Of a stretch of 64,000 bases of DNA, positions 3,868 through 42,195 are shown in pieces. The DNA lies in the NCBI GenBank assembly GCA_030272585.1, contig BSYQ01000005.1, positions 3,348,001 through 3,412,000 of the forward strand, in the 5' to 3' direction. How positions within the stretch are numbered: the first letter of the stretch is position 1; each line of letters starts with the position of its first letter. The DNA is from Bryopsis sp. KO-2023 (Eukaryota; Chlorophyta; Ulvophyceae; Bryopsidales; Bryopsidaceae). Made by a program: the position numbers and the translations under genes. The notes under the pieces are model-generated. The model was given only the letters and a program-made list of their open reading frames with translations. It did not search any database and was not told where the DNA came from.

Positions 3868-4323
3868 CAGAGATAGGACTTGGGCCAAATTTTTGGTCCG
3901 ACTCCGGTCCGGTCCGGTTACGGTCGGGTTACGGTCACCGTACTACGGCCGTAACTCCGTACCGTAACCGGAGTAATATGTTGTTTTTACGGTACGGAAC
4001 AGGTACGGTATAACTACGGTAGGCCCTAAATCACCGTGAAGTAGCGTGGTTCAGTGCTAAAGCGTTAGGCTGCAGTCAGTAGGGTCGCGGGTTCGAATCC
4101 CCCTGGGTTCCTTTGGAATCGCGGGACCCTGCGGGGGTCACTTTCTACGGTTTACGGCCGTTACGGTCGTTACGGTCCGGTACGGAGCGGTACGGAGTGG
4201 TACGGTGCTACGGTTACGGCCGTAAAAGTACGATTTTCTGACGAAAATTGTACTCCGGTTACGGTCCGGTTACGGTGGTTACGGTCCGGTTACGGTGACC
4301 GTAACCGTAAAGTCCTATCTCTG
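3868..4323 (+). mobile_element. hAT-like non-autonomous element with tRNA-type promoter, copy 1 (456 bp)
   Basis: Perfect 14-bp terminal inverted repeats CAGAGATAGGACTT / AAGTCCTATCTCTG, flanked by an 8-bp direct duplication CTGTGCAC (3860-3867 and 4324-4331). Subterminal regions are packed with TTACGGT/ACCGTAA words in both orientations. CAGAG-type ends plus an 8-bp duplication are diagnostic of the hAT superfamily. No transposase is encoded. The centre holds tRNA-type box A and box B. Compared with copies 2 and 3 it lacks 9 bases (TTGTTACGG) near 4150. Because the host DNA itself is rich in CTGTGCAC, the duplication here is weaker evidence alone than in the other copies. Confidence 0.88.
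4041..4111 (+). promoter_or_regulatory. tRNA-like sequence with Pol III box A and box B (copy 1)
   Basis: Box A-like TGGTTCAGTGC at 4047-4057 and a perfect box B GGTTCGAATCC at 4090-4100, at tRNA-like spacing. The loop CTGCAGT between them could be read as a GCA anticodon loop, but the anticodon and acceptor stems do not pair properly and there is no T-run just after it. So it is a tRNA-derived internal promoter rather than a functional tRNA. Confidence 0.6.
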
Positions 4324-4624
4324 CTGTGCACAGATCGGACCTGTGCTGCACAGGTGAGCAGACCTGCACAGCACAGCACAGAACTGCACAGAACTGCACA
4401 GAATCTGCACAGAACTGCACAGAAACTGCACAGATTTTGCACAGAATCTGCACAGAATCTGCACAGAACTGCACAGAACTGCACAGAAACTGCACAGATT
4501 TTGCACAGACCCTGTCTGTGCTGTGCTGTACAGGTCTGTGCACCTGTGCAGCACAGGTCTGACCCTGTGCACAGAACAGACTGTCTGTTCTGTCCTGTCC
4601 TGTGCACAGGGGTCTCAGCCCATG

Positions 4625-5628
4625 TCTGGTGGTGAGGCTCCGGAACCGGCTCCGAAACCGAACAGATCTGTTCCAGCCCGGGACGGTGGTTGATCGGGAT
4701 GCCGCCGAGGTGGTTTTCCGGCATTTAACGTCGCTGAACACCTATTTTTCTGCTACCGTGTGTGAAGTGTTCAAATCCGGTCCAAGAAAGGTCAAATCCG
4801 GTCTAGTAAAGGCCACCACTAATTTCTGCCGATTCCAACAACTTAATGTGCAAAGTTCATCAAAACTAAAACCCCGATTGATGAAAGAGTGCACACAAAT
4901 CCTAGATATCAAAATCACCAATCGACCCTAGATAGCCCATCAGAAACACCTAATCAATACACATCAAACTTGAAATGTGTTGTGATTATGAAAACGGTGT
5001 CCTGTGAGATGAGGGCATATGTTTATTAAAGGAGAGAGTTGTGCCCCGATGGGGAAAGAAACGGGATCTGTGAATGACTCAGTGTAGAGTCAGGCCTGGT
5101 GGAAGTGTATTGTTACAAGGCTGAGAGGCGGATATGTTTTTTGTGACGTTGTTGTAAAAACATTTTGTGGATAGTCTCCGAGACTACGCATGGGGATATC
5201 CTCCTTGATTTAACTCACATCGAACTTAATCATAACTGCGAATAAAGCTCTGAAATTTTGCCCTCGAAGTCCATATGTGTGGGGTATTGTTTGCAAAATT
5301 GGGAAGTAATGCAATCCTTACTTGGCGTTCAGATATTTAGCTGGCATGCCACAAGATCGAATTACTGTAATCGTTCAATTTGTTTTTATGCTGAGGAATG
5401 TATTGTCGGATGATTGTCCCTTTTCCCTTTCTGAGTTGCGCACACTCTCCAACTTTTATTTCCGAAGGTCTTTCCGCTGAAAAAAAATCTAGATTGACAA
5501 AGCTCCAAGGGGAAAGGGCAAGGCTGTTTTTCCCCTTGGGAATTCTTGAGGCGGAAGGAATGCAAACACTAACTTATGCCAGGTTACATTCTCTGGCGAT
5601 GTGCATTGAATTGGGTGAATCATGTACA
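4625..5628. other. Intergenic, no gene seen
   Basis: Moderately A+T-rich DNA between the nested transposons and the 3' end of the IQCH gene. No coding exon or RNA gene recognised. The last part is probably the IQCH 3' UTR. Confidence 0.5.
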
Positions 5629-8600
5629 TTACAAAGGTTTATTTGCAGTTTGCAATCGCTCCGCCAAATACTTCACAGTCATTCGGATGCCATTGAACGA
5701 TTTCGCATCGCCATCGCCGTCCGTCAGCCCTGAGCTCAGACCCAACTGTTTCCTTACGCCACCTACTTGGCCTGAGATGAAGTCGAGCACATCGCTGAGC
5801 TCATTGAATGCCTCGAAAGGGGACAAACCCACGCACAGCACCCCCAACACACCCGTCGCGAATCCATCAGCCACGTTGAAAGCCGTCCCGATCCGATCCT
5901 GCACACACAGCCGAAAGCTCAGATAAGCTGAAATCAGAAGCAAGTCTTCGCACGAAAAGGTTGCTCGCAGCCCCGTTGAGTCTGGTACTGCCAGATTTGT
6001 TTCGAAGTGCGCGATTTCGAGCTACTTTTGGGTCTTTGTTTCCCACCTGCATGTCGAAGCACATCCCATGCACGCGACAGCAGTGGAAAAATGACGCATA
6101 CTGCAGCTTTTGCAAGAGTGGGTGGGCAAGCCTGTCCAAAGACACATAGAATCGCCTTTGGAGCGTAGATTCGCTCACAGGGCTCTCGCTCTCCTTCACG
6201 AGGCCGTCAATGTATTCTGGATTTCTATCTCTGTCCCCATCCCCATCCCCTCGTTCCACCGCCAGCTCCCTTCTCAGTTTTTCTTCGAACGAAGCCTCAG
6301 ACTCTTCGTCATCGGGTATAAGATACGCTCCTATTTTGGGGTCAAATTCTCCGGCAGTTAAAAAGTCGAAGAGTTGGAAAGACGTGAGGGCTAGCGTTGG
6401 ATAGGGCGAGAGGTTTGTCGCCCACATTTTCAGTTGTCCGTGTTCCTGCAAGACTACAAACGAGATTCCAAGGTGTCCTATTATTCCCAGGTCTCTGGAA
6501 ACCATTCCAATAGCCACGGCAGCATCATACAGCGCCATGTGGGGAACGGAGCATTGTGGGAACGAGTTTCCAACTGGAATGTGGGCTGGACAGAACACCT
6601 GGGGAACACACTACGTATAGTTTCTGATTCTGGTTGTGTGCATAAGCATCGACTGCAGAACTGGTGCTGTCCAAACCTGCTCGTGTGTAGACAACACCCT
6701 CACACTTCCAACGGGCTCAATGAAAATATTCACCGATGGACATCCTGTTGTGGAGGAGGGTATTGCTTCGAGCACAGCCCCTCGAACGCGAATCTGCTTC
6801 ACGAATGCGCGGTAGTTTGGAAAGACATCCTTCCTCACGATGGTCAGTTTTTTGGGCAGGGACTTCGTTAAACATGCTGTCACTTTGTGGATCGCAACAT
6901 CTGCAGCCTCTCCAAGCACGTGAGCGGTCATTGGATCCCCCATGAGCACCATGTACCTTAAAAAAACCAAAGCTCTTAGCGAATAGCAAGGCGATAGAAA
7001 AATAGAGACCGTTCAAAGAACTCCCTCGCAGACGAATCAACCTGTCAAGAGCTCCCTTTGCTGCATCTATTTCGTCTACATTGAAATGCGCGACGCCACG
7101 CCCGCCAACTTCATCATCTATGTTGATGGACCAGCAGCGATGCTTGGGATTCTTGACAAGTGTTTCCGCAACACCCTTTATCAAAAACCCATCGTTGCGC
7201 GGCCGACGACCTCCACCACTGGAGCCTGGCAATCCGTCCGAAACAACGAGGTGGCCCGCCGCATCGATGTTAAAGCTCGTATCTGGGAAAAACACAAGCA
7301 CCAATTTATAGATGGTGAAGAACCTGGACTCCCTGTTGCAACTGTCTCGATGAATTGGGCGACTCTTGATGGAATGGAAAAGAGCTCACTTGGCGTCAAC
7401 GGAGATATCTCCACATCGGCAACTGCGTCGGGGATTGCTTCAAATATCTTCCCTGGAGGTGTGTTAACTCCAGCGCTCTGAAACACTGCCCTGGCCCCTG
7501 ATTTCAACGCCACCGCTTGTCCATAGTGAGGGTGGGACGCCAGCAGCGGGATTTCTAAGGCGACGCTCAAGCTAATGTCTTCATCTCCAACCATGCTCGG
7601 AACGATGTATGCTGGTCTTCCGTGGGTGAAGTTTCGTATCCGATCCAGTGCCCTCGGAGAGCTCAGCAGCTTTCCAGTAAGGGACATTTGGGAAGGGAGT
7701 CGGCATGCATTTTCAGGGTGAATGATACTGCACACAACAAACTCAACCATCTGTAGACGTCGAAGAAAGCGCAAAAATGGGAAAAGTGCGAACCGCAGCA
7801 GACCCGCCACCTGTATCTGTTTGCTGGCTGCTCAACTCCTCCCACTTCGAGCAGTTTTCGCCAGTAGCCTTCGACTTCTGTGTCTACGGCAGCGGCGGCT
7901 ACGTACACCACGTCGACATTTGTATCCGCCACATCACACAGCCTGGCCATTTGAAGGATTTCCTGCTGTTCTGACTTGTGACTGTTCCCCCCAGACACGG
8001 AAGCCACGTGCACGACAACGTGGTGATTTCTTTGAATATCGGGCCAAGTCGCCAGGAGCCTGTCTTGAAGAAGCTGGAACTTATGGTCACGTTCCTCCCT
8101 TGCCCTGTGGAAACACGGATACTGAGGAAGCCAATCAACTGCACCTCTATACTTCCGCTTTTCATTATTTTGTCGTGTTTCTAAAAAGGCACAATTTCAC
8201 CACCGACGTTCTTCACACCTTTGCCCCCGTACTTTCTCATTTTGCTTATTGCAGCATTTCGATATCGATTGAGTCTCCAGGCTTCCTGAATCTCTTTGGC
8301 AGCTGCTCTCATCTTGTCAATTCTGGGGGCGTGCGATCTGGATCGATACCCTCTGTAGTGGGCTTGTATCATCAGAGCAGCCTCCTGCTTGCCATGGATA
8401 CCTTTGAATCGCCTACAGAACGTATGATGTTAGAGCCCGAGGTAAGGAATCTGCTAGGTCAACTTATCATACCAAAGCGTCTCTTCCAGTGTTGCTTCAA
8501 ACGCTGATATGGAAAGATCGATAGAACATCCTTGAAGATAGGCTACCTTCCAGGTTGTTTTAGGATTAGAGCAACTTCTTGTATGTTGCTGATACAAGCA

Positions 8601-10757
8601 AGCAGCTCTTCCATGGGACACGGCTCTCCAGCGACCAGCGTTGCATTTGCAGCCTCCGCAATCGTTTTCCCATCAATCAGGGCGATAGGCACAGCATACT
8701 GGCAGCAGACGCCCTCCAGCTGAAGAAGCAGATCAGCAACGTATGGCCAAATTCTGGTGTACGTCCGGTGGAAAGATAAAAATTCCGGCGTCGAATCCAC
8801 GGTCACACCATGGCGGATCATGATTTGATGCAAACTGTGTGCATCCATAAGCTCCTCATATTCTCTTGGACCTGAATCATTGAGCTCGCGCTTAAATACA
8901 CCTTGAATCATAACTCTCTATCAGCTCCCTCCAAATACATGGCCAGAGAGTTCACCTTTGCGAATCCCTTCTCCACCATGACCTGAAGCGGGATCACCCC
9001 CAATGTGTTGGCTGTTGAGGCCAGTCTTTTCCCCGATCCTCGCTCTGCTTGGCATCACAACAGGCGTCAAGACATCCAGTTTATACGCCATAGCCCCTTG
9101 CGCCGTGACGCTGTCCTCAAGTGCCGATGTTGGCATCCTCTTCTCAAAACGCTGTTCGAAGGGATGCATGTATGCTCGCAACGTGCGAACTACCCATGAC
9201 CCGCCGGATATGGTGCTGCCGATGTCGACGTAGTGAGGAAGGAGGCCTCGATTGACGAGATGCAATATTCCTTTGTGAATTTCCATGCTGGAAATATCGG
9301 TGGGGGCCGTTTCGAACGGGTCATCTCTGATAAACCTGGGGAGGATGACGGACGGGGGCACTGGCAGCCCTTTGACGACGGAGCAAAACGGGTTGGGGTC
9401 GACAGGGCTGGATCTGGCACGATCGTCTCCCTCGAGGGGCGTGGGGATTCCATACCGTTCCTGAAGAAAAAAGATGCGATGGTTAATTGCACTTAAGCTT
9501 TCAGTGGTCCATAGTCAGACGGACGTTCGGCTGGTACGTTCGACTCGCTCATACCCAACCTTCTGGCGTTGGAAACCTCATATACCTTCAGGTACTCACG
9601 TGCAGCTTTGGACGTCGGGTTTTCAATGCAACGCGAGCCGAACTTCTCTCTCCCAGCGTCCAATCCCATTGCCGCCTGTTTTCTATGTTTTGCCACCCAT
9701 GGGGCAGGAGTGTTTGAGAACCGCGTTCTTGGAATTTTTGGCGGCGGTCTCATTTTCACGTTCGCATCTTCGTTTTCCAATTCCAAGTTGAAAGTTTCCT
9801 GTATGTACAGGAAACTCTTGTCTATGCATAAGAGCAAGCAGAATTCGTGGGTGAAACCGTGGCGCACATTCAAAAACGATGTCTCGCTGAAACGAGAAGC
9901 CACTACCTTCATTTTTTGCGCAAGGCCATCTTCTGCTCTTCGAAGGGCCACCTCGACATCAGCAACCGAGGTCCATTCGTTCAAGGAGGCGCGCACATTT
10001 CTGATTTCTGATATCGCCTGCACCCCACAATACTGTTTGTGTCCAGCTTCTTCCACCCATTTATGCACACCCCAGGCAACTGTTCGATCGACGCTACCCT
10101 GCATTGTTTAGTTTGCGTGTGGGATCAACTTGTTTCTACCTCATCGAGCACGAGTTTTGTCTCCCCCTTGCCCTCGGCCAAATCGCCCATTTTGACTTTG
10201 AGTTGCTCAACACCGTCTCTTTCGCGGAGAATTGGGCTTATTCTACCACCACCAAATCTTTTCTCGACGGTTGGAGCTCCCGCAATGGTTTGTTTTTCTG
10301 TTGCGCGGAATGTTGAAATCCGCCCACCAGAAAACGATGAACCGTCGGGCCTTTCATGCCGGCCCGCAGTCATTTTCGACACACCCGTAGAACTCACGTG
10401 ATTGCTGACGTGTCCGCACAAAACCTACCTTCTCCAAACCAGCAAACTCGTTGCCAACAACAGCAATCACCTTGCCAGAAACCTCTTCCACTTTTGAAGT
10501 TGGTTCGTGTTGTGTTTTTTTTTCTCTGTTGCACCTCTAGAGCTGCATTTTCGTAACGATGTTTGCTCTGCAATCGAGTGCTGCGTTGGAAATGGGGTTC
10601 ATGAGGTCACCCCCTCGTTCCCGTCCCGCCTTTTCAAAGACAAGGGCATCCGCAGGTGGGATCACCGAATAACTGCTGTCGCTCTCCCGCGAGGCAATTT
10701 CTTGAAAGATAGCGCGACGCTCCGTAGAATTGCGCTCGAAGGCAAATCGGAAGTTTT
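5629..10757 (-). CDS. IQCH: IQCH-like protein (IQ motif protein H), multi-exon
   Basis: A long minus-strand gene ending with TAA at 5629-5631. Recognisable blocks, N to C: an IQ motif (IQAHYRGYRSR, near 8370), followed by the conserved IQCH core (HVVVHVASVSG, ARLCDVADTNVDVVYV, 7850-8130), the block AYIVPSMVGDEDISLSVALE (7560-7620), FIEPVGSVRVLS (about 6700), and MVSRDLGIIGHLGISFVVLQ to MWATNLSPY (6400-6510). These match the C-terminal ATP-grasp-like half of IQCH in the known order. Exons are short. The N-terminal part (exons near 10430-10510 and 10563-10757) reads as coding, but the link between them is uncertain because one junction leaves an in-frame TAG, and I did not find the start codon. 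IQCH is found in organisms with motile flagella and in animals acts in sperm; here a role in the flagellum, possibly calmodulin binding, is inferred. Confidence 0.82.
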
Positions 10758-11457
10758 CTTAAAAAGTTATGCAGTAGGTTTCTTGGACAGTGTGTGCATC
10801 GTCTGGTTCAGTGCCTGTTGGGGTTAATCCCCAGGGATGTTGCTTGTACTTTGTTTGAGGGAAGTTTGACTTTGGTAGCAGGAGCTATTTTTTCCTTTGT
10901 CTGCAACCTTTTGTTGTTGAAAGCGAGGTCAAATTCTTCTTTTAGCCTTTTTTTTCGGTTCGAATGGATCTTTTTACATTTGAATATTCCATCAAGTGTT
11001 CTGCTACTGTTGAAGATTATTCAGTAACATTATGAGAGGGGTGGGAATTATTTAATTATTAATTAAATCGTGAGGGAGGAACTAAAGTGGAAAAAAAATG
11101 AATCCATCCTATAAAAAGAAAACAAGCATTGCATTTTTTGGAAGGGGGGGGGGGGGGGTTAGGTCACCAGAGGAATTTTCTTGTGCATATTTTTTTTTTC
11201 TGTATTGAATTTCATCGAGTCTGAAAACCCCCATCTGTTAGATACAAAAAATGTTCCCCCCCCCCCCCCACACACACACACTGCTGAAACAACGATAAAC
11301 CAATTTCTCCATTACTTGAATAGGGTTTTGTGAATATCGTACAATAGAGGGATTTTCTGGGGTGTCAGCGATTTTGAATTTCCACATGAAGGACTGGACA
11401 AACAGGCTAATGTGTGATTTTTTTCCCCCTGCTCAATTTTTTTTTCTTCTTTTTCAG

Positions 11458-12203
11458 AGCCTGAGGCCAAGACTACAAAAAGCAGTCTTGAGGTTATGAG
11501 GAAATTCTCGGAGCAATATGCATCCAGGTACATAATCGGACCAGAAAAAAAAGAAAACACTCCTCGTTTATAGGCCTTACCGGCAGATGTTAAAAATACA
11601 GGAAATCACACAACCAAAAGAAAGGGTGGTTTATCCAATCACGATTTTTTCTCCCTGCCATTCCCAATTCCACGGTTTTTTCTTCTGCATATTATTTACT
11701 ACTAAGTATTTTATTATGATTTTTTTTTTTTTTTGGGGGGGGGGGGAAGAGAGAGGCTGCTCCTTTTCCTGTCATCTTTTTTCTCGATTGAACTATATGA
11801 AAACAGAACAGTCTAATAAAAGCAGCAGAGCCTTTCTTTTTCCTTTCCTTCTTCTTCTTCTTCTTTCTCATTTGCCATGCTTACCTTTCCTGATTTCCCC
11901 TGCCCCCTTTTTTCGGAATTTTGCAGGAGCGATACTTTCTTTTGTGTGGATAAGTCCGTGACGGCGGTGGTCATCAAGGGGCTTGCCGAACATAAGGATA
12001 CTCTGGGAGCGCCCCTGTGCCCCTGCAGGCACTACGATGATAAAGAGGCCGAGGCCAAGAACGGCTTCTGGAATTGCCCCTGCGTGCCGATGAGGGAGCG
12101 CAAAGAATGCCATTGCATGCTTTTTTTGACGGAGGATAGCGATTTCTCGGGCCCCGACCAAGCCATCACCATGGATGAAATCAAAGATGGTCTCGGAGAG
12201 TGA
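11458..12203 (+). CDS. ftrC: Ferredoxin-thioredoxin reductase, catalytic beta chain (5' exon missing)
   Basis: Two exons join in phase: 11458-11527 (SLEVMRKFSEQYAS) and 11927-12203 (stop TGA). The product carries all seven cysteines of the family: FFCVD, LCPCRHY, NCPCVPM and ECHCM, which bind the [4Fe-4S] cluster and form the redox disulfide. The enzyme passes electrons from ferredoxin to thioredoxin in the plastid stroma, activating light-regulated enzymes. The first visible exon starts in phase 1, so at least one upstream exon (start codon and plastid-targeting leader) must lie before 11458; I could not identify it in 10760-11457. In many algae this subunit is plastid-encoded, so a nuclear, intron-containing copy is informative about the lineage. 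Confidence 0.93.
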
Positions 12204-13791
12204 TTCTGTTTTTTTTTTCCCCTCCCTTCCCCCTCCAAAAAAAGATGGAAAAGAAATTATGTGACTGAAAAAAAAAAAAAAGAAATTGAAGGTTTTTTGG
12301 GGGTGGGATGAATCAGAGGAGAAGTGCGGGAAAGAAATTGGAGAAGAAAAATGAGTCTGTGAGGGGATGGGGGAGGGGGGGGGGGGGGTGTTGAGTGAAA
12401 AATGAGCCGGATTCTTGTTTTGTTTCGTTTTTTGAATGATTAGGGTGGATTCGTTTTTTTGAAAGTAATGAGGGTTGGGCTGGTTGATGTCGCAACACAG
12501 AGGAGGAAAAAAAAATGCTGATGTTTGATTTGCGGTTTGGTTGATTCCATACAGATTGTTTTTTGTTTTTTTTTGGTGGGCGTACACCTGCCTGTCAGAC
12601 AAAGAGATCTTAAAAGGGATACTTTGCTTTTTTGGACTGTTTTCTTTTTTTGGGTGGGCAGGGGGTGAAAGCAACACAAAAATTTTGCAGGGAGAAGGTA
12701 TTGAAAAGAAAGTGTAGGAAAAAAAAAAGGATGCGAGGAAGAAGAATTTTTGTGTGTGTTGATGTGTCTTTGTCTGCCAACACTGATGCCAGTTTTTCTT
12801 TTGTGTATTTTTTTGGAAGAAAAGACGAAAGCAAGTAAAGTTTTGCTGTGAAGAATGTTTTTTTTACCACAGATTTGATGTGCAGTGGTGGCAAATCCAC
12901 ATCTGATATTGAAATTGCAATAGGCCAAAAGGCCGAGTGCAGCCCATTCTCGGATATGTTTTACCAAAATTAAAATAGTTTTTTTGAAAGTTGAACTGGT
13001 AGGCTCCTCCCTTAAATAGATGCTTCTTTCTTGTTGCTTTCTTAATTCCCTTCACTGAGAGGCATCCGAAAGTGAGAAATCTGAATTGAAGTGAGGTCAA
13101 TTCTACAAAATACAAACAAGAGAAATCATCCCCCGCGTTCCACTGGATTCTAAGTCTCCCCCCGCCCCTCTTCATGAACATACCCAACACAAAAGAGCAA
13201 GGCTGGTAGAACTGCACCATCACCAGCCCCCTTGAGAAGCTCACCAGGACACCTGGGCCTGTCATAATTCAAAAAGCTTTTTGGATACTGTTAATGTGCC
13301 CATTTTTGTATTTATGGGTTGACTGGATGTTAGTCTGGCGCAAGGATAAGACGTCTATCACCAAAATGAGGACACCTTTTTTGTAAGGTCACGATCCGCT
13401 TGTCAAGAAGCAAGTCTGTGAAACACCTTGAATTTAAAAACACCCAACCACCCAACCTCCCCAGGCCAGCTTGCAAACAAATTACCAACAAACTCAGCCA
13501 AGATTCCAGCTGGATGAAACCAGACTTACTAATCCATAACGGTCACTCCTGTATGTCCGCGTGCGAGTTTTGGCCGGTACAATTGTGCCCGCGACCTGGA
13601 CCTGTCTGCTTTCTGAAGTGCTCCAGAGGATATCATTGGAGCTCCCTCGATTTTTCGTTGCCACGGGGAATAGAATATACGTGCTTTCCTTGCACCCACC
13701 GCCGATTCTCGAGACAGGAAAGAGTTAGCAAAACACAGCGCCACCGTCTCGACAAGAAAGTCCAGTTCAGGGTCGGGGGCGCTCCGAAGAG
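12204..13791. other. Intergenic, homopolymer-rich
   Basis: Contains many T, A and G runs (for example G10 near 12376) and no recognisable coding exon. The final ~100 bases should contain the GT31 promoter and 5' UTR; no clear TATA box seen. Confidence 0.5.
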
Positions 13792-18165: not shown

Positions 18166-18178
18166 TGGTTTCGGAGCC
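18166..18178 (+). promoter_or_regulatory. Primer binding site of TRIM-like element
   Basis: TGGTTTCGGAGCC immediately after the LTR, complementary to a tRNA 3' end GGCTCCGAAACCA. The same 13 bases follow the 5' LTR of the large retrotransposon at 38905. Confidence 0.75.
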
Positions 18179-26662: not shown

Positions 26663-26929
26663 TCAAGATGCTTCTTCCTAAAATGTTACCAGCCAAGTGG
26701 CCTGCGAATGTATCGCATGCTGCTGCTTGCTTAGTGCGTCACGCACAAAAAAATAACACACGGCTATCACACGCTTCTCTGGAAAAGGGGTCTGGTGGGG
26801 GTTTGTGTTATACTATAACATAGTATGGTAAGCGACTTTTGTAGTGTTGTGAGGGATTTGATACAAACTCGAGAGTAGTGCTTCAGGAATCGAACCCGAA
26901 AGAGGCCAGCGCACCAAGTTTTGAATCCT

Positions 26930-27120
26930 GGGTGCACAATCGCAGTGGTAGTGGAGAACCGTGACTATGCCGTGCAGGGCGGGTGCAAGCACCCGTTACC
27001 CCCGCACCCGATGAAAAATCAGGTTAATCGTCGACGGGATTCGTTGAATCCCATATCAGCGATCAAACTGATAAGAACAGAAACTACACTTGATCTTAGC
27101 CAAAAGGCCGAGAAAGGTAT
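26930..27120 (-). ncRNA. U2 spliceosomal RNA
   Basis: The minus strand reads ATACCTTTCTCGGCCTTTTG then GCTAAGATCAAGTGTAGT, the near-universal U2 5' end. Next come stem IIa (TATCAG..CTGATA), a perfect stem IIb (GGGATTC AAC GAATCCC), an Sm-type site (GATTTTTC), stem IV (GGGTGCTTGCACCC) and the 3' end at GTGCACCC. About 191 nt, normal for U2. All domains are intact, so this looks functional. The branch-point-pairing sequence reads GUAGUU rather than the usual GUAGUA. Confidence 0.95.
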
Positions 27121-28972: not shown

Positions 28973-29776
28973 TCAGTCAGTCTCCTTCTCCTCCTTTATT
29001 TTCTCAATGCTTTCCTCGATCCACTCTTGAACATGTGCCACATTCGCATAAACGCCAGGATGCTCCAGACCGCAGCCCAGCCCCCAAGAAACCAACCCCG
29101 CTAATTTACCCTCCACGAAAAGGGGAGCACCCGCAGAACACATATCTTTGCCAACTTCCCCAGCGCACACCATATCGTCCGTGACTTCGATCTCGGTGTA
29201 TGTTGCGTTGCACTCGCTGCGGGGCACCAACGGGACTTGAACTTTCTGGAGTTCTTTCGACAGCGAAAACCGACTGCCGGGCTCGAGAAAATCCCACCCA
29301 ACAGCCACCCCATCCCCACATGGCGATCCTTGCTGGAAGCATTTTTCGTCTTTGTGCATCTCGACCGGCTGGTGTTTGGACTCCCCATCCAACACCACCA
29401 GCACGAAATTAAACCATGTCACCCCGCTCTGCTTGTCTTGACGGAATCGTGGATGGAATATCGCTCCGTCCTGCGCTTTAAACGATTCGAAACGCCCCTC
29501 GTCGTTTCCTTCCCTCATGAATCGATTGATATGGATCGCAGAATCTCTGCGGCCTCCGTGGTGTCGCATACACACAGCGGCCGTGAGGATCACGTTCTTT
29601 GCGACAAGGACACCGTTGCAGTGATGCTTTCCAGACCGCCGCCGCCCAACCCCCTCTGTTCCGGGATATCTGAGCGACGCCACGGCCGGGAATTCACCAG
29701 GTTTGACTGGTTGGGTGCCCACCGATTCCGCCGGCGGCACCCCGATCCACAGCAACAAGAGTGCGAGCAACAACAT
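28973..29776 (-). CDS. Trypsin-fold (S1) protein lacking the catalytic triad
   Basis: An intronless frame of 267 residues. I chose the ATG at 29774-29776 because it opens directly into a signal peptide (MLLLALLLLWIGVPPAESVG); upstream in-frame codons have no ATG. The S1 fold is clear: PGEFPAVASLRY, the Cys42-Cys58 region (HHCNGVLVAKNVILTAAVC), DDMVCAG, PLFVEGKLAGLVSWGLGCG, PGVYANVAHVQEWIE. But the histidine of the TAAHC motif is Val, the aspartate of the DIAL block is Phe (NFVLVVL), and the nucleophile serine of GDSGGP is Ala (SAGAPL). All three triad residues are gone, so it should be a secreted or lumenal non-enzymatic serine protease homologue, perhaps a binding protein. The frame is intact, which argues against decay. 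Confidence 0.88.
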   Translation of the reverse strand: MLLLALLLLWIGVPPAESVGTQPVKPGEFPAVASLRYPGTEGVGRRRSGKHHCNGVLVAKNVILTAAVCMRHHGGRRDSAIHINRFMREGNDEGRFESFKAQDGAIFHPRFRQDKQSGVTWFNFVLVVLDGESKHQPVEMHKDEKCFQQGSPCGDGVAVGWDFLEPGSRFSLSKELQKVQVPLVPRSECNATYTEIEVTDDMVCAGEVGKDMCSAGAPLFVEGKLAGLVSWGLGCGLEHPGVYANVAHVQEWIEESIEKIKEEKETD

Positions 29777-30839
29777 TCTTGCCTGCCCAAGCCACAAACG
29801 CAACTTTGTTCCCAACGCACGCAAGGTTTCCAGAAGGGAAAGAGGAGCGTTAAGGAGATCAGTTTCTGAACTTTCCCACCGATTGTGTCGATGAACACGA
29901 TTTGGCCTTTGGCAGGCTGCATGGTGGCTTGCGTCACCCCAACGCTTTAAGAATTAAAAAAAAATTAGATTAAAATCCTTATATAAGGTTTCGATTTGCC
30001 CAGCGTGTCTGGTACCTTACCAGGAAAAAAAAAAGTACTGTATGATGATTCGCAATTCCTGGTGGCTTGATGTTTGTTATTCTCTCTCTCTATCCAGAAG
30101 AGAGGGCAGCAGTGTGCATGCCCATTTGGAATAGAGGCCATAAATGCTCGATCTTGGCCGCATTCGACCACCTCTCCCTTCTTTTGGGAGGTTGGTCCCC
30201 CCAAAAGTACCAAAATGAATCAGTGTTGGTTTTGGCTAACCCTAACTTATTGGAATTTCCAGAGCAAAACAAAAGGGGGCAGGGGGGAAAAAGAGAGAGA
30301 CAAGAGAAAAAAGTTGGAACGAAAAAATTTATGGTTTTGCTTCGATAGTCCCTTTTTTGATTAATGTATACTACGTAGTGGCGTGTATACATGATGAAAA
30401 TCGAAACTCAATAATAACAGCAACAATCACCGACATGTGAAAACCTATCAACGTGCTTACAGGAAGAAACTCACACATCAGCCACCTCCAGTTTCAGATG
30501 GAACGCGAAACAGCAAACAATCCACCCCTCAAATTCATCACAAAAGGCCAAAATTCCCCACAGGACGAATTAAGAAAAACTACCTGCAGTCCACCCCAAT
30601 ATCAGTTCGCCGACATAACCAATCTTCTCATCCAAACTAATTATTCCCTATGCCTCCAAATTTAACATTGCACGTATATGAGTATTACATGAGGTATCCC
30701 CAGCACCTCCCTCCCCCCCCCCCCCCAAAAAAAAAGAAATAAAAAATCACAATGCAGCGTACAGGAAGTGCCAATGGCGTATGTTCGAATTTACACAATC
30801 TTGTGATGGAGACCATGTTTCCAGGAATAGCTGCAGCTG
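29777..30839. other. Intergenic, no gene seen
   Basis: Contains a C15/A9 composite run (30712-30735). No coding exon recognised; holds the VPS53 3' flank. Confidence 0.5.
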
Positions 30840-33800: not shown

Positions 33801-36800
33801 CCCCTCTGGAAATGTACTTGGCACATCGCTGAAGAGACCCTTGGATTCTGAAAAAAAGTTTGTTGGCGCTTTGCAAGACGTTGGAATCCTCGATGGGTTT
33901 CCATTGGCGATCCGCTTCCTCTTTCACACAGGCTGACATGTGGTTCATCATTTCTTGATATTCTTCCTCCACATAGTACCTGGATGAACCCCCCCAGGAT
34001 TGATTTTTTTTTCAATCAAACCCGACAGTCGGGCCTCAAAATAGAGTTCGGCAAAGGGGCCCCCCAGAAAAAAGGGGAAAAATTAAAAATACATAGGGAG
34101 TCCAAAAACGTGGATTTGAATTCGGGTGTCCCCAAACAATGTCTAATGAATTCTTGTGACAGGGGAAAAAGACTCTGATGGAATCTACTCTGATGGTTGA
34201 TATTGATATTCTCACCTCAGGTGTTTTTCGAAAACGGCAGATATGCTGCCTTCGAATGCCAGTCTTGCTTGCCTCAGATTGCTTTCCTCTTCTTCGTTTC
34301 TCGTTTCCTCGTCTTCACCATTTCCCCCTTGTGCCTGGCATCCAATCCAATATGCGGTAATCATATACTCTGAGTTTTTTTTTCTTTTTTTTTTGGGGGG
34401 GGGGGGCACACACACACACGTGTGTGCCGATGATCGAGATATCATTGCGAACAGAGACCAGCAATAGCTGGGAAAAATTGTAAAAAATTGTAAAATTTTG
34501 AACATCGACTGACTGGAGCCCTCCTCCTCCAACCCAACACACAGTGGGAATACCTGTTTCAGAGTGGCTGCCAGTCTCCTTCGAGCATCTGCTGCTGCCG
34601 AATTCTCTTCCCCTCCATTTACTTCCTCATCCTCTGTGGAACCCTCCTAAGTCAGGAGCACAAATGAGTAATAAGCCTTGCCCTTTTCTGAAGAAAGGAT
34701 GAAGCTGAGGGATGTGCGTTTTTTTACTTATTTTCCAATTTGTTTTTGGCAGGGCTTTCAAATTATGTGAACCGACACGAGAAGATACGTTGAATTTTTG
34801 AGGGAAAGCGCACAGGGTCTCACCTCCATCAGGCCACCTCCAAATCTTGCAAGCATTTCACGTTCGAAACGGTTGGTGTCCACCACAGCTTTGAGCAAGG
34901 CAGCGACGTTATCCCTCATATTTTCTACCTACCCCCCCAAAAAAGAGAGAAAAGAAATTAAAATTAAAGCATATTTTTAGACTGAATGAAACACAAAACT
35001 AACAGATGGGGAGGAAAAAAAACCCAAAGGGGAAGCACTGCACTTGAGAGGTGGTATCGAAATCCCTCTCCCCCCCCCCCCCCCCTTTCAAAAAAAAGGA
35101 AAAGTACGGATTCAAAAAGTCACACAGAGCATGATTTTTTCCCCTTCACATATCTCCACTGTTCCTCAATTTTTATATCAACTCAGCAAACACTGTTTTC
35201 CTGGCACCTATTTCACTTCTTCCCACAGGTTCAAAAAAAACACCTACCCCATCTTCATTCCTCTCAATTCACCCGCCTAAAAAAAATGTTTTCTTTTTTA
35301 TCACAGCACTGTCGACCACAAGGACAAAAACCTTTTTTTTTTTTTTCAACTGCTGGCGTTCATTCCGCTCACCTGATCCAACACTTCCGCCAGCTGTGAT
35401 TTGGTCACTTTACAAAACGACATGGATACCAATTGGGGAACTCTCCAAGACTGAGGAAACACTGCCCACAGCTCCGGCCGATCGTCCAATCTCTTTTTCA
35501 ACCATTGATGCCTTCGATCGGTTCGCTCCAGCTTCGCAACTTCCCCCAAAGTGCCATAAATCTGTTTATAAACGCTCATTTCCTTATCGCACACGATCCC
35601 CACCAATTCATCGGCCACCTGTTTTCATATTAACAAACATAAAAAAACAAAAAACACTCACCCACCCATCCACCCACCAAAAAACAACGATAGAACAATG
35701 AAACTAATGAAAGAAACAACCAAAAAAATACAGCAATCAAAGAAGGATTTAAAAAGATACCCTGAGAATTTGAAACCAGAAAACCACCTTGGCCACATTT
35801 TTGTTTCAGTCTTGGAAACTACAAACTTTTTTTTTTCTTGGCCACATTTTATTCCAGTCTTGGAATCTAAAAAAAAAAAAATCTTTTTTTTTTTCTTTTC
35901 GATCCAGATTTTTTCAGTGAAGAAGTCTACCTTGGGACCAAGAGCATCCACAACATGACATCCATTTGCCAATCTTTCCAAAGTTTCGGCGCTGGGTTGA
36001 GAATCGGCCACTCCAAGCATGGTGCGAAAATCATCAAACACGCTGCCTTTCAGGGCCACTCTGATGGATTCCAGTTTCCCTGTGAGCTCGGCGACTTTGG
36101 GAATGTGTCCGTATTGTTCGAAATATTTCGAAAGCTGGGCCACCGCTTCCAGCAAATGCGCACACTCCCTGTAATTGTCCCTAGAAGAAAGCAACTCCTC
36201 GAGGCTTTGAATGGCTTTCGTCAACATCGCCAATCGCCTGTGTTTTTTTTTGTTCAATGATTTGGAAGTCAACAAAAACAACACAAAAATCTCTCAGAAA
36301 AAATTAAAAACCACCAAAAAATTCCCAGGAAAAGAAAAATTTAGGCTGATACATGGTGGTTTATTGTCGGGAGTGCGAATTTAAAAAAATACTGTTAAAG
36401 GTTGATAAAACAAAACTCTCTAAACACAATCAACTGCTTCTATTCTTCTTTCCCATTACTTTCTTTTTTGCCACATATTTCAAAGAGGTGAAAGATCCCT
36501 GTTTTCTCAAAAAAGAAAAAAAGACCCCACCCCAAAATTTTTATTTTTTATTTTTTTTATTTTTTTTTATTTTTTTCCGCACCTCAGTGCTGTGATTGCG
36601 TGGGTCAGATGCTGTTTTGCATAATCAAGCTTTTTGATGTCTCTACATATTTCTTGGACCATGGCTTCGCTGTCTTCAGCTTTCCGTTGGATCTCTTGGA
36701 TTTTCCCAAACAGTTCTTGAATTTGAGATTGAACGATGCCCAGCTCTTGCCTTTCACCCCCCCAAAAAAATAAAATAAAAATAAAATAAACAAGTACAAG

Positions 36801-38503
36801 CCTGAAAAAAAAAATTGGAGAGCCCAACATTTGCTTGAATTCATACAATGTGGAATATGCACAGGCAAGAATTTATGGAAGGGGGAAAACATATACATAC
36901 AAACACAGATATATATATGTAGATATACTCTTTTTTGCTACATATCTGAAAATGTCGTTTAAAAACGAAAACAGCTGGAAGAAACCATTTTTAGCCAAGT
37001 TCCAACTATTCAATCAGTTTAATTGTGGTGTCGAATTTATTTGTTTCGATCTCCCCCCCAAAAAAAGAACAAAATCCACATAATCCACATCACTGATGCT
37101 ATCACTGTTTTCCTTTTTTGTTTTTCTGTTCCCAATTTTTACCTTGCTCGGCTTTCAGAGCTGCTTTGCTGCCGGACGGCATCAAGAATATCATGGTCGA
37201 CCCTTCGTATCTGAAATTAAAAGAAGAATATTTATAGAAAAAATAAATAAAAAAGTTTTGGAGTGCACCTGGACATCATGTCGTTTGAAATTCTGAGTCG
37301 ACCTATCCACACATTTCTGTGAGACGGGATGCCACTCAGCAATTTATTATTTTTTTTTCTTTTTTCTTTTTGCCTCGTGGGAAATTCTTAATATCGGAAT
37401 TGCAAGAACATATTCATCATTTGTGGCCACAGTCCAGAAGTCCAGCGCGAAGTGTTAAATATTAGGTTTCATTTTAATTTGTTTCAAATGCAGAACACTG
37501 TGATAAATAACCCTTCCATAAACTGAAGAAAAAAGTAAACATAACAGTGCTGATAAATGTCCCAAAATACAAACTTGATATTTATCAACCTTAGTAAACA
37601 ATGAAGTATGTTTTAAGGGAAGGGTGGCTTCTGCTCAAAACTACACTTCCAATCCGCTAATTATTGATACCATACCCTTTTTTTTGGGGGGGGGGGTGGG
37701 GGGTGGGGGTGGAAATGTGAATCCTTTTTGTTTATCAGCCCCGATACAATACATTGCAAAACAAGCGGTAAAAGAACAGATGGCAGATTCAAAAAATTTT
37801 GACCCACCTTTCTTCGAAGAGCTGATACGAGATCATCCAACGATCCAAGCGAAGCTTCTGCTTATCCGCAAAAAAAAAAAGTTTTTAAAAACAGGTTATA
37901 ATAATGGATATGAATATATCAGCGTTCTGGATGAAGGTAGTGAGTCTTTCCTTTCTCCCCGTGAAGCTCAACTACTCGACAAAAGAAAATGACTAACTAA
38001 ACTAATAATAAATAAAACATGATTGCTGTGATGTGATTTGTTCTGGTTGATCGTTTTTGGGCTCTTTTTTCGAACAAATCCAGTTTTTTTTTCATTGTTT
38101 TCAGTAAGTGTTTTCTAAGATTTTATTTTATAAAAATACGCATATTTTTGTGATCCCTTTAATTAAGAAAATAACACTCTTTCGACATATTTAAAGAACA
38201 AGGAATAAAGAAATTACAAACTAAAATCCTGACAATAAGGAATTTGAATAACGACACCGGTTTCTGACAGGCAGCACAAACGCCAGCCGCTGCTATCTTT
38301 ACAAATTCTCAAGTTTCACTCCTTGGATCTCTTGAAGAGAAGCACCACCACTCACCAGTCGGAAACAGCTTATTGATGAAGTCGACAGCGTTGAAATCCT
38401 CGCGGTCGAATATATCGCCTTTCACTCGCGTCGATCCTACCCTCGAAAGACCCCCCGCTGGACTATGTGCACTGGATTCCTCGAAAGCCGAAGAGGTTTC
38501 CAT
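30840..38503 (-). CDS. VPS53: Vacuolar protein sorting-associated protein 53 (GARP/EARP subunit)
   Basis: Sixteen exons join in phase to 870 residues: 38356-38503, 37808-37857, 37143-37210, 36583-36750, 35931-36237, 35373-35618, 34824-34928, 34554-34646, 34216-34334, 33769-33979, 33038-33268, 32759-32877, 32158-32337, 31702-31963, 31286-31460, 30840-30970. The N-terminus has the VPS53 signature [18 protein letters not shown], then [15 protein letters not shown] and [40 protein letters not shown], and [15 protein letters not shown] low-complexity acidic insert lies in exons 8-9, and an Ala/Gly-rich tail in the last two exons. VPS53 is a core rod subunit of the GARP and EARP tethering complexes that receive endosome-derived vesicles at the trans-Golgi and recycle cargo. 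A retrotransposon sits 143 bp upstream of the start codon. Confidence 0.96.
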
Positions 38504-38646
38504 CGTCGTTCGTGTTTGCTGCGAGAAAGGGGGAAAAAAGGGTGATAATTCGAGAGGAGTTGCTGTGAGTCAGTCATGCAAACATCGCCCTTCAAAAAAG
38601 CAATTTTGAGGAAGCCACAATGAAGAGGAAGACGCCGATATACTAT

Positions 38647-38904
38647 TGTTCCACACAGACTGATTACAGTCTGATTATCGGAAATAGATTGTTGTGAGGA
38701 AGTTAGACGATCGAGAGGAGGGAAGAGTTAGATCGATGTGAGGAAGTTAGGTTACTGGAATGGATGTGAAACGACACTTGACAGAAACTAGGGAAGGTAT
38801 TTATCGGGAAGGAAACCCGGAACAATCTAACAGTGTAAGAAAGACTCAAACGATCCACAGCTCGTTTCACGCAAGGATTGGGAAAACATGGGTTTCACTG
38901 TACA
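38647..38904 (+). repeat. 5' LTR of the retrotransposon
   Basis: 258 bp, identical by eye to 44264-44521. Contains GTATTTATC as a possible TATA-like box. The Gag start codon lies within its last 17 bases. Confidence 0.95.
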
Positions 38905-38917
38905 TGGTTTCGGAGCC
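38905..38917 (+). promoter_or_regulatory. Primer binding site of the retrotransposon
   Basis: TGGTTTCGGAGCC directly after the 5' LTR; identical to that of the TRIM-like element at 18166-18178. Predicts a tRNA ending GGCTCCGAAACCA, perhaps a methionine tRNA. Confidence 0.8.
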
Positions 38918-39178
38918 GAAGACGTTACTGGGCGCAACGCTACCAGAACGAAAAAAAAAGTACTCTCACCTCTCTCGCTCGCTTGGCTCACCATTTTCTT
39001 TTGGACGACCTGCATACGCACAGTGGAAGGAGGATTTTTCACGACAGCCCAAGACAAGGCGCTGGCAGAGTCCGAAAACGCAAAAATGAAGCTAAGGGAG
39101 AAGGTGATGTCTCTCTCAGAGCAACTCCTCGCCGAGAGACGACTACGCGAACAACCCTTCCAGTGGTATATCCGCGAT

Positions 39179-39643
39179 CAGAGATAGGACTTGGGCCAAA
39201 TTTTTGGTCCGACTCCGGTCCGGTCCGGTTACGGTCGGGTTACGGTCACCGTACTACGGCCGTAACTCCGTACCGTAACCGGAGTAATATGTTGTTTTTA
39301 CGGTACGGAACAGGTACGGTATAACTACGGTAGGCCCTAAATCACCGTGAAGTAGCGTGGTTCAGTGCTAAAGCGTTAGGCTGCAGTCAGTAGGGTCGCG
39401 GGTTCGAATCCCCCTGGGTTCCTTTGGAATCGCGGGACCCTGCGGGGGTCACTTTCTACGGTTTACGGTTGTTACGGCCGTTACGGTCGTTACGGTCCGG
39501 TACGGAGCGGTACGGAGTGGTACGGTGCTACGGTTACGGCCGTAAAAGTACGATTTTCTGACGAAAATTGTACTCCGGTTACGGTCCGGTTACGGTGGTT
39601 ACGGTCCGGTTACGGTGACCGTAACCGTAAAGTCCTATCTCTG
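39179..39643 (+). mobile_element. hAT-like element with tRNA-type promoter, copy 2 (465 bp)
   Basis: Ends CAGAGATAGGACTT / AAGTCCTATCTCTG with an 8-bp duplication TCCGCGAT (39171-39178 and 39644-39651) in unique coding DNA, which makes the hAT assignment secure. Identical by eye to copy 3. Inserted in the Gag region; box A at 39358-39368 and box B at 39401-39411. No protein-coding capacity. Confidence 0.95.
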
Positions 39644-41730
39644 TCCGCGATCGGGGTGAAAAACCACCCCCTGACGAACCGACACCTCCACCCAAACTGG
39701 AGCCAACCTGGGACACCCCTCGTGCCAAAGACCCACTCGTCAAAACGGCGGGGTGGTTCCCTTTTTTTCGACTACCTACAGGCCAGGGCAAAAAAACCGA
39801 AAACTGCGCCAAATGGGATACCTGTCTCACTCTTTTCACCAGCGCTTTTTTCCAGGCCACTTCATCGCTGTCCACGGCAGTGCGGACCTTCTTCCACGAC
39901 CCTTTCGACGTTTTTGGCGCCATGCCCAGACGGACCCGCCTTTGGTTCTCGTCCCGCCTGGATGTGCTGTCGCAGCTATTTGGGGCGTTACTGGCGTTCT
40001 TCCTGGTGAACGTCCTCGCTTTCGTTTACCTCAAGCTCTCGAGTGTCATCAAAACGATCAAGGGGTCTCTTCGAACTTTGGGGAAGCTGCCGGTCGTCAC
40101 ACTCGCGACCACCACTGGCGAATGGATTTTGCGATGGATGTGGAGGAGTGTCGTTTCGACGCCCCAGACGACGGAACTCCAAGCACAGCTTAAAGGGCTT
40201 CAGGACACGGTGGCTGCGCTCCAAGCAGACAGGGATCAACAGTGTGGCTACTGTGGGTGGAGGGGCCACTCGGAAAAAAACTGTAGGAAGAAAAAACAAA
40301 CAACAAAAATTGCTAACACTGTAAAAAGCACTTCGCAGTACGCAGCAGCTTCCCCACCACCATCCCTTCTCCACACCCCCATCACCATTCACAACTGTCA
40401 ATTAAAATCCTGCCTGATCGATACCGGATCTCAGGCGTCCCTCCTTCCTCTCTCCATCGCCAAGAGGTATGGGATCCCCTACAGTTCTACCCTCCAAACG
40501 CCACAGCGCATCGAAGGTTTCAACGGCTCCTCTAGCGTCGTCAGTGGGGAAGCTTTCCTGCCTACCGCTGTCGGAGTTTCGAACGACACAAGCCTCGTCA
40601 CATGGCTCGTCACAAATGCGACGACCACTCCAATTCTGGGCATCGATGGGATAAAGGCGCTCAACATCTCGGTGAACGCCAACCTTGGCGAAATTTGCCA
40701 AACCACCACAGGAGCGACAATTAAATGTCATGTGGTAACTTCTACTAACCCAACAATTGCACCTCAACAAGGCACTGTCCACCTTACCCAACTCTGGCCT
40801 GTACACCAGGGAACTGGACTCTCCAGTAAGAAAACCTGCATTCAGCTTCAAGCAGGCAAACCCTATATTCTGGAACCGAAAAAATGGACTCGGCTTTACT
40901 TACCCTATCGAATGGACGTCGCCGGCCAGGCCACCGTCACGCCTGCACTACACCGACCTGGACTCGTCACAGGCGCATTGACGACTAAGGCTGGCCACTT
41001 CCGCGTCGACGTCTGGAACTCGACGGATCGCGTCCACCAGCTCACGGCCACCACACCTCTCATCAACATCCACGGCGCCCAACACCATGTCGTCAACCGC
41101 CTCGACCGCCCCAAAGTCCACGCGGTCACCCTACCAGACACACCCAACCTTACAGGCGACGCCATTGCTACTGATATCATGGAACGTTTCCCAGACGTCG
41201 GCGACCTCAGCACGCACCCTATCAACGCTAAAATGAGGGCGCTCCAAATACGACCGGACGAAATGGATTGGACGAAACCAGGCGATGCAGGACTACGAAC
41301 GGAATACTCTGTCGACAAGGTCGTTGACAGAAACGCAGTCACCAAACAACTGGAGCTCTATGTCGACCGTGGGTACCTTTCCCTCTCACCTTCATCAGAA
41401 TCAGCGTTTTTCAACCCATTACTTCCCATCGCCAAGGACGACGGCACCTATCGTTTCACTAACGACTTTCGACGGCTCAACGGATATTTCAAAAAGTTGG
41501 GCATGGTTTTCTCCGACCCATGGCGCACCATATGGAAAGTAAAGGCAGACTGGAAAGTCTATGCAAAAATCGACCTCAAAGACGCGTTTTTTGGGCTCGC
41601 CATATCACCTGAGCTATCGCCACTTTTCTCCTTCACCTGGCAAGGGCGGCGCTACAAGTGGAATCGTCTCCCCCAGGGATGGTGTTGGAGCCCGACTCTT
41701 TTCTCCGACAGAATCACCAGCATCCTCGGG

Positions 41731-42195
41731 CAGAGATAGGACTTGGGCCAAATTTTTGGTCCGACTCCGGTCCGGTCCGGTTACGGTCGGGTTACGGTCA
41801 CCGTACTACGGCCGTAACTCCGTACCGTAACCGGAGTAATATGTTGTTTTTACGGTACGGAACAGGTACGGTATAACTACGGTAGGCCCTAAATCACCGT
41901 GAAGTAGCGTGGTTCAGTGCTAAAGCGTTAGGCTGCAGTCAGTAGGGTCGCGGGTTCGAATCCCCCTGGGTTCCTTTGGAATCGCGGGACCCTGCGGGGG
42001 TCACTTTCTACGGTTTACGGTTGTTACGGCCGTTACGGTCGTTACGGTCCGGTACGGAGCGGTACGGAGTGGTACGGTGCTACGGTTACGGCCGTAAAAG
42101 TACGATTTTCTGACGAAAATTGTACTCCGGTTACGGTCCGGTTACGGTGGTTACGGTCCGGTTACGGTGACCGTAACCGTAAAGTCCTATCTCTG
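41731..42195 (+). mobile_element. hAT-like element with tRNA-type promoter, copy 3 (465 bp)
   Basis: Same ends and length as copy 2, with an 8-bp duplication TCCTCGGG (41723-41730 and 42196-42203). Inserted in the reverse transcriptase palm, a few codons before the YADD box. Box A at 41910-41920 and box B at 41953-41963. Same orientation as copies 1 and 2. Confidence 0.95.

What the first reader, a model, noticed from the sequence alone, without database searches (positions are those of the whole stretch)
3868..42195. A hAT-like transposon family with a built-in tRNA-type Pol III promoter
Three copies (3868-4323, 39179-39643, 41731-42195) have perfect 14-bp inverted ends CAGAGATAGGACTT and three different exact 8-bp target duplications (CTGTGCAC, TCCGCGAT, TCCTCGGG), which is a hAT signature. 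Each carries a tRNA-like core with box A and a perfect box B in its centre, like the head of a SINE, within a DNA transposon body dense in TTACGG words. A cut-and-paste element that could also be transcribed by Pol III is an unusual combination. Transcription might expose the element, make a structured RNA, or simply be a captured tRNA fragment; which is inference.
Basis: partly seen in the sequence, partly recalled or inferred. Interest (0 to 1): 0.8.

Follow-up and report, generated by a model that had tools for sequence, protein, structure and literature searches.

The report
tRNA-promoter cassette shared by hAT transposons
Short cut-and-paste jumping elements in this genome carry a tRNA-like promoter in their middle, and related promoter pieces sit inside several different jumping-element families, as if the piece were passed between them.

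Summary
The three window copies have perfect 14-bp ends and exact 8-bp duplications. The 91-Mb genome holds 393 forward and 397 reverse copies of the end. Of 55 copies examined, 51 have exact 8-bp duplications and 54 a perfect box B. Full-length relatives with a hAT transposase domain, the same ends and exact duplications exist: 8 of 10 fetched loci. The TTACGG words are end repeats of that autonomous element; in those 8 copies the core is absent. Unexpectedly, tRNA-like cores fill non-autonomous elements of three further hAT lineages with other ends: homology is clear for two, weaker for F2. One 333-bp core module is 90% identical between two lineages whose ends differ, so it has moved between lineages. 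Box A, box B, a TATA 38-39 bp upstream (28 in F2) and the tail are better conserved than the stretch between the boxes. No RNA fold is supported. Pol III transcription is untested. I rate this a new variant of a known kind.

The parts
3868..4323 (+). hAT non-autonomous element copy 1 (456 bp), family F1
   Evidence: 14-bp perfect ends, TSD CTGTGCAC on both sides
3860..3867 (.). left 8-bp target duplication CTGTGCAC of copy 1 (right copy 4324-4331)
4009..4014 (+). TATA motif (TATAAC) 38 bp upstream of box A, copy 1
4047..4057 (+). box A-like TGGTTCAGTGC, copy 1
4090..4100 (+). box B GGTTCGAATCC, copy 1
4101..4141 (+). conserved 3' tail of the core (..GGGACCCTGCGGGGGTCAC), copy 1
   Evidence: related tails in lineages F2b and F3
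39179..39643 (+). F1 element copy 2 (465 bp; the commonest form, identical in 18 of 55 copies)
   Evidence: TSD TCCGCGAT at 39171-39178 and 39644-39651
39320..39325 (+). TATA motif, copy 2
39358..39368 (+). box A-like, copy 2
39401..39411 (+). box B, copy 2
39412..39452 (+). conserved tail, copy 2
39552..39558 (+). GATTTTC, first T4 run after box B, possible Pol III terminator, copy 2 (no T4 run in 8 of 34 unique core-bearing forms)
41731..42195 (+). F1 element copy 3 (465 bp), inserted in an LTR-retrotransposon-like coding stretch
   Evidence: TSD TCCTCGGG at 41723-41730 and 42196-42203
41872..41877 (+). TATA motif, copy 3
41910..41920 (+). box A-like, copy 3
41953..41963 (+). box B, copy 3
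41964..42004 (+). conserved tail, copy 3

Best explanation
These are non-autonomous hAT elements moved in trans by the transposase of the full-length F1 element found in the same genome (shown: shared ends, exact 8-bp duplications, PF05699 domain; inferred: that this enzyme moves them). The middle is a tRNA-derived promoter cassette (TATA, box A, box B, conserved tail) that the autonomous copies examined lack. Related cassettes sit in the non-autonomous elements of three further hAT lineages, and one module has been exchanged between lineages, most simply by recombination or template switching during repair of excision gaps (exchange shown by core/end incongruence; route inferred). Most likely working role, inferred: the cassette recruits TFIIIC/TFIIIB/Pol III, which keeps the element in open, perhaps fork-stalling chromatin, so that transposase reaches it and silencing is avoided; core-bearing elements therefore multiply better. 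Step estimates: hAT origin and trans-mobilisation 0.95; core homologous among F1, F2b and F3 0.95, and also F2 0.75; module moved between lineages 0.85; Pol III machinery actually binds 0.6; binding favours amplification 0.35.
For: Exact ends and duplications. Autonomous F1: 31 rows with a 350-aa PF05699 frame among 150 scored matches. Eight of 10 fetched loci have both ends (two of them with 1-2 end mismatches) and an exact duplication, 4743-6385 bp. The short element's first 105 bp are 97% identical to the autonomous right end, its last 47-48 bp 90-94% to the left end. F2: ends CATACTATGGATC, 198+183, control 0; 1025-bp element with an inverted pair of cores, TSD CCCACTAC; autonomous 7335 bp, TSD CCACACAC, ends 96% and 87% shared, no box B or tail motif found in it. 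F3: 963 bp, ends CAGAGCTGGGCAGTA, TSD GTTACAGG, 94% shared over 298 bp with a PF05699-bearing element. F2b: end exactly 330 bp from the core at L009 and 6 further loci, and 2812-2814 bp from a PF05699 match at 8 loci. Module of 333 bp 90% identical between F2b and F3. Cross-family core scores with box B masked exceed all 500 mononucleotide shuffles for F1 with F2, F2b and F3. Boxes more conserved than spacer between F1 and F2b/F3 in 6 of 6 comparisons, p 0.005-0.032, not independent. Box B 0 of 11 columns variable in 34 sequences, adjoining 11-column blocks 8 and 9 variable. TATA at 38 bp in 34 of 34 core-bearing F1 sequences, 39 bp in the F2b and F3 copies.
Against: No expression or binding data. 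Rfam's tRNA model and ARAGORN do not recognise the core. RNA folds of six cores are mostly no better than shuffles (z +0.02 to -1.94; the L009 core is beaten by 7 of 200). No T4 run follows box B in 8 of 34 unique core-bearing F1 sequences, so the unit is often not self-terminating. In F2 the TATA is 28, not 38-39, bp from box A. With box B masked, the minus-strand F2 core is no more like F2b or F3 than shuffles (222 and 234 of 500 as good), so F2 might have caught its own tRNA piece. Twenty-two of 455 windows in F1 are as invariant as box B. F2 and F2b were first noticed through a box B pattern, so their box B is not independent evidence.
Confidence: 0.6

Rival explanations
1. Neutral filler: a degenerate tRNA-derived sequence was captured once or a few times, swapped between hAT lineages by chance, and amplified only because its host elements were good substrates. 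The boxes do nothing.
For: Many copies are recent and identical (18 of 55), so boxes could look conserved by youth. No T4 run in 8 of 34 sequences, no RNA fold. The first look of the tRNA search found 8630 candidates in this genome, of which only 63 were scored, so tRNA-like pieces may be common.
Against: Between F1 and F2b/F3 the spacer is at 44-53% identity while box A is at 64-82%, box B 91% and tail 76-88%. Related cores in several lineages, and the upstream TATA at a nearly fixed distance in three of them. Core-bearing F1 elements outnumber the core-less sibling, found at 6 loci.
Confidence: 0.3
2. The core is a free-standing SINE that inserted separately into each hAT element.
For: tRNA-like head with boxes A/B plus a conserved unrelated tail is SINE anatomy. 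Other tRNA-like sites occur in fetched loci (L005/L051, L008/L033, L061).
Against: The places listed for box B plus tail (the first ones of 520) all have the match length of the F1 or F2 core; most were not opened, and the pattern cannot see F2b or F3. F2, F2b and F3 hold inverted pairs of cores, with a linker shared by F2b and F3, which SINE insertion does not predict. I saw no A-rich tail at the core border by eye; duplications at the core borders were not tested.
Confidence: 0.12
3. The elements are SINEs or other RNA-copied retroposons whose inverted ends are incidental.
For: Small size, high copy number, Pol III-type boxes.
Against: Perfect inverted ends shared with transposase-bearing elements, exact 8-bp duplications in 51 of 55 with a bias nYnnnnRn.
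Confidence: 0.02
4. The core makes a functional structured RNA (a tRNA or a hairpin source of small RNA).
For: Inverted pairs in F2/F2b/F3 could form long hairpins if read through. The L009 core folds at z -1.94.
Against: No Rfam tRNA match. Five of six single cores fold within one standard deviation of shuffles. The stretch between the boxes is the least conserved.
Confidence: 0.08

Closest known systems
hAT MITEs, such as mar in Drosophila (PMC3517528) and Brassica nigra BniHAT (PMC7385995); for both I saw the search listing and start of abstract
   Same: Short non-coding elements of the hAT type.
   Different: No tRNA-type promoter core is mentioned in the little I saw of these papers; here related cores occur in several hAT lineages.
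hAT autonomous elements with repeated subterminal transposase-binding motifs, e.g. Herves (PMC3143072, abstract and passages)
   Same: A short motif repeated near both ends, in the transposase-binding regions of Herves; TTACGG words occupy the same place here.
   Different: The motif differs; binding is not tested here.
Cassandra, an LTR retrotransposon carrying a 5S rRNA promoter (PMC10853983, search listing and start of abstract)
   Same: A non-autonomous mobile element that carries an internal Pol III promoter from a cellular gene.
   Different: Cassandra is RNA-copied with LTRs; this is a cut-and-paste hAT with inverted ends and 8-bp duplications.
tRNA-derived SINEs (recalled)
   Same: tRNA-like head with boxes A and B followed by an unrelated conserved tail.
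   Different: Inverted ends and fixed 8-bp duplications; moves as a hAT.
DINE-1 of Drosophila (PMC2374699, passages)
   Same: Abundant DNA element first taken for SINE-like.
   Different: The paper states that DINE-1 does not appear to have Pol III promoter consensus sequences or tRNA similarity; these elements have the boxes.

Membership tests
hAT superfamily | 8-bp target duplications | tested here: met
   51 of 55 F1 copies exact; F2, F3 and autonomous copies too
hAT superfamily | short inverted ends beginning CA (recalled) | tested here: met
   CAGAGATAGGACTT, CATACTATGGATC, CAGAGCTGGGCAGTA
hAT superfamily | hAT transposase encoded by an element with the same ends | tested here: met
   PF05699, E 5.7e-19 for F1 and 7.8e-16 for F2, inside elements with matching ends
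hAT superfamily | Ac-type duplication bias nTnnnnAn (recalled) | tested here: inconclusive
   position 2 T 28, C 18 and position 7 A 27, G 21 of 51: a looser nYnnnnRn bias; no significance test
hAT superfamily | transposase binds the subterminal repeats | not testable with these tools
   TTACGG density only
MITE (non-autonomous derivative) | short, high copy, ends shared with an autonomous element | tested here: met
   105 bp at 97% and 47-48 bp at 90-94%; about 395 end pairs including long copies
tRNA-derived SINE | boxes A and B of a tRNA-type promoter | tested here: met
tRNA-derived SINE | variable duplications and no inverted ends | tested here: not met
   inverted ends and fixed 8-bp duplications
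Pol III transcription unit | T-run terminator downstream | tested here: inconclusive
   a T4 run follows box B in 26 of 34 unique core-bearing F1 sequences, none in 8
Pol III transcription unit | transcript or Pol III/TFIIIC binding | not testable with these tools
   no expression or binding data held
tRNA gene | cloverleaf recognised by tRNA models | tested here: not met
   ARAGORN 0 in window; no RF00005 match at E up to 10 and 5
tRNA-derived sequence | similarity to a tRNA gene of the same genome | tested here: met
   best match tRNA-Leu for 4 of 5 cores among 12 distinct tRNA genes, all from L070, and tRNA-Ile for the fifth; best z 5.8-11.3 against mononucleotide shuffles

The most novel reading that the evidence does not exclude
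A Pol III promoter cassette acts as a portable selfish module. It rides inside deletion derivatives of several different hAT transposons, is passed between them by recombination, and is kept because recruiting Pol III factors makes the carrier a better substrate or harder to silence. It would be a parasite of elements that are themselves parasites of autonomous transposons.
Probability: 0.3. Interest if true: 0.88.

Novelty: new variant of a known kind. Interest (0 to 1): 0.72.

Why it matters
DNA transposons need no transcript of their short derivatives, so a conserved tRNA-type promoter inside them has no obvious use. Here related cassettes recur in several hAT lineages of one genome, with the promoter boxes kept while the sequence between them has drifted. 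That makes a testable case that Pol III factor binding, rather than an RNA product, helps a cut-and-paste element persist. It also gives a clear example of an interior module exchanged between transposon families with different ends, which bears on how non-autonomous elements get their unrelated interiors.

Tried and rejected
A true tRNA or known RNA family: rejected, no ARAGORN or Rfam tRNA hit; the microRNA-family hits are all below their gathering scores, and those whose alignments I saw lie in simple repeats or TTACGG palindromes. SINE origin of the whole element: rejected by ends, duplications and autonomous partner. Structured RNA: not supported. The F2 duplication was first read as 9 bp and MULE-like (note); one search corrected it to 8 bp. 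I looked for the core in the autonomous F1 copies by BLAST and box B scan of 8 copies: absent, apart from an F2 element nested in L067. The host species was not identified. Six paper searches for a tRNA-cored DNA transposon or MITE and a seventh listed nothing that I recognised as such; I judged by titles, listed abstract starts and, for PMC2374699 and PMC4524691, passages. PMC4524691 reports unclassified Solanum repeats with A-box or B-box motifs. Only open-licence papers are held.

Limits of the sample: of the loci that gave the 55 F1 copies, 12 were picked by similarity to the element or its core; those and the window were picked by place or by the 14-bp end, and the others were fetched for the transposase. 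Copies were counted only if both ends had at most 2 mismatches and lay 300-600 bp apart. The core-less 330-bp copy (L031) was dropped from the column counts (34 of 35 unique sequences used). One artefact row (F2b_L009m_517) appears in the alignment and was not used in counts. The pattern listings show only the first places.
Full report
1. The observation. The three window copies are as described: 456, 465 and 465 bp, perfect 14-bp inverted ends, three different exact 8-bp duplications. Copies 2 and 3 are identical, and copy 1 differs only by 9 gap columns. The window lies in a 91-Mb genome of 28 contigs, at C5:3348001-3412000; a U2 spliceosomal RNA gene in the window shows that it is eukaryotic. 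The 14-bp end occurs 393 times forward and 397 times reverse, against 0 for the reversed pattern.

2. Sampled copies. From the fetched loci plus the window I collected 55 distinct F1 copies (both ends with at most 2 mismatches, 300-600 bp apart). Fifty-one have exact 8-bp duplications, two of the other four differ at one base, and two have unrelated flanks. Fifty-four carry a perfect box B; the exception, L031, is a 330-bp element without the core. Eighteen of the 55 are identical to the window copy at 39179, so the family has been active recently. The duplications show C or T at position 2 (46 of 51) and A or G at position 7 (48 of 51), a looser form of the Ac-type bias that I recall for hAT elements.

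3. The autonomous partner. A genome search with the Pfam hAT dimerisation domain scored 150 matches, 31 of them in a 350-aa frame. I fetched 10 of these loci with long flanks. Eight have both F1 ends and an exact 8-bp duplication, with lengths of 4743 to 6385 bp (one left end has one mismatch, one has two); L061 shows only one end and L062 has mismatched flanks. The first 105 bp of the short element are 97% identical to the right end of the long one, and its last 47-48 bp are 90-94% identical to the left end. The TTACGG words are thus subterminal repeats of the autonomous element. In Herves, another hAT, a short motif repeated near both ends is where the transposase binds (PMC3143072, abstract and passages). 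In the window, only the three short elements match the autonomous F1 element at E up to 1e-10.

4. A second family. The tRNA-like core is not in the 8 autonomous copies. While checking this I found a different element nested in one of them (L067) with two inverted tRNA-like heads. It proved to be a second hAT family, F2: ends CATACTATGGATC (198 + 183 places, control 0), 8-bp duplications at three loci, a 1025-bp short form (L071), and a 7335-bp long form (L072) with duplication CCACACAC and an 839-aa frame with the hAT domain. The short form shares 265 bp (96%) and 377 bp (87%) with the ends of the long form; its middle, which holds the two cores, does not align.

5. Third and fourth lineages. 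A search with the core of a further element in L009 led to L093: 963 bp, ends CAGAGCTGGGCAGTA (37 + 43 places, control 0), duplication GTTACAGG. Its first 298 bp are 94% identical to the end of an element in L002 that carries a hAT domain match, and its end type lies 821-878 bp from hAT domain matches at five places. This is F3. The L009 element itself has the end CATACTATGGATCCGACACCGATA. That end lies exactly 330 bp from the core in L009 and at six further places, and 2812-2814 bp from a hAT domain match at eight places, seven of them in a 774-aa frame and one in a 307-aa frame. This is F2b; its first 16 bp are shared with F2.

6. Are the cores one thing? Cores of F1, F2, F2b and F3 (about 124 bp) are 57-75% identical between families, except that F2b and F3 are 90-91% identical. 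With box B masked, local scores of F1 against F2, F2b and F3, and of the plus F2 core against F2b and F3, exceed all 500 shuffles; the minus F2 core against F2b and F3 does not (222 and 234 of 500 shuffles as good). Homology is thus clear for F1, F2b and F3 and likely but weaker for F2. The whole inverted-pair module is 90% identical over 333 bp between F2b and F3, although their ends and arms differ, while F2b and F2, which share 16 bp of end, are only 58-64% alike in the core. Ends and cores thus tell different histories, which means exchange of the interior between lineages. All four have a TATA, a box A-like stretch, box B and a tail ending in CTGCGGGGGTCAC or variants of it.

7. What is conserved. 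Between F1 and F2b or F3, matches are 7-9 of 11 in box A, 10 of 11 in box B and 31-36 of 41 in the tail, but 14-17 of 32 in the spacer between the boxes (six comparisons that share sequences; permutation p 0.005-0.032). Within F1, box B has no variable column among 34 unique sequences, while the two 11-column blocks before it have 8 and 9; but 22 of 455 windows are as invariant, among them the ends. TATA lies 38 bp upstream of box A in 34 of 34 core-bearing F1 sequences, 39 bp in the F2b and F3 cores (both strands of one copy each), and 28 bp in F2. A TATA-like box at -31/-24 is reported for the rodent 4.5SH and 4.5SI Pol III genes (PMC10137851, start of abstract), so the place is plausible for Pol III. 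F2 and F2b were first noticed by a box B pattern, so their box B adds little; F3 was found by overall similarity.

8. What is not supported. The core is not called a tRNA by ARAGORN or Rfam. Of 12 distinct tRNA genes, all in L070, tRNA-Leu is nearest to four of five cores and tRNA-Ile to the fifth. Folds of six cores: five lie within one standard deviation of shuffles and one at z -1.94. A T4 run follows box B in 26 of 34 unique core-bearing F1 sequences, and 8 have none. So selection, if any, seems to act on the DNA promoter rather than on an RNA shape.

9. Does the core help? The core-less F1 sibling was found at six loci (18 pattern hits, three registers each, up to 3 mismatches), against a family with about 395 end pairs, long copies included, in which 54 of 55 short copies examined carry the core. 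This fits an advantage but can also be chance of which copy amplified.

10. Verdict. Pol III activity and the advantage are inference. My searches of open papers listed no such case; Cassandra, an LTR element with a 5S promoter, is the nearest parallel that I saw (PMC10853983, search listing and start of abstract).

Noticed in passing
window 26927-27120 (-): A complete U2 spliceosomal RNA gene (145.5 bits), which shows the window is eukaryotic.
   Followed up: no
window 39880-44090: Two long frames of an LTR-retrotransposon-like element (named by eye, not by a family search) stand on either side of F1 copy 3 (41731-42195); copy 2 lies just upstream. Described only.
   Followed up: partly
window 1-1766: Possibly the tail of another hAT element: an inverted end CATACTAGGGATA at 1754-1766, with a hAT domain match in a 784-aa frame just outside the window at C5:3346586.
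   Followed up: partly
C5:3665776-3768531 and C5:3115534-3144253; L070: tRNA genes in tandem arrays with a period of about 3.0-3.5 kb; L070 holds 14 tRNA genes, 12 distinct, on both sides of an F1 autonomous copy.
   Followed up: partly
L059 (C1:5124000-5126500), L067, L002, L038: Nested insertions: F1 short element inside an F2 short element, F2 inside F1 autonomous, F1 beside the hAT domain match of an F3-ended element, and F1 inside F1, with exact 8-bp duplications.
   Followed up: partly
L053 (C1:9315800-9324500): An 8.4-kb stretch bounded by F1 ends and duplication GCCAAAAC that contains an F1 core, perhaps a short element enlarged by a large insertion.
   Followed up: no
L005/L051, L008/L033, L061: Other tRNA-like box B sites, two of them repeated between loci, that belong to none of the four families by eye and may be SINEs.
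   Followed up: no
window about 4377-4496 (-): A TCTGTGCAG-type simple repeat right of copy 1 (seen as below-threshold microRNA hits), near its duplication CTGTGCAC.
   Followed up: no
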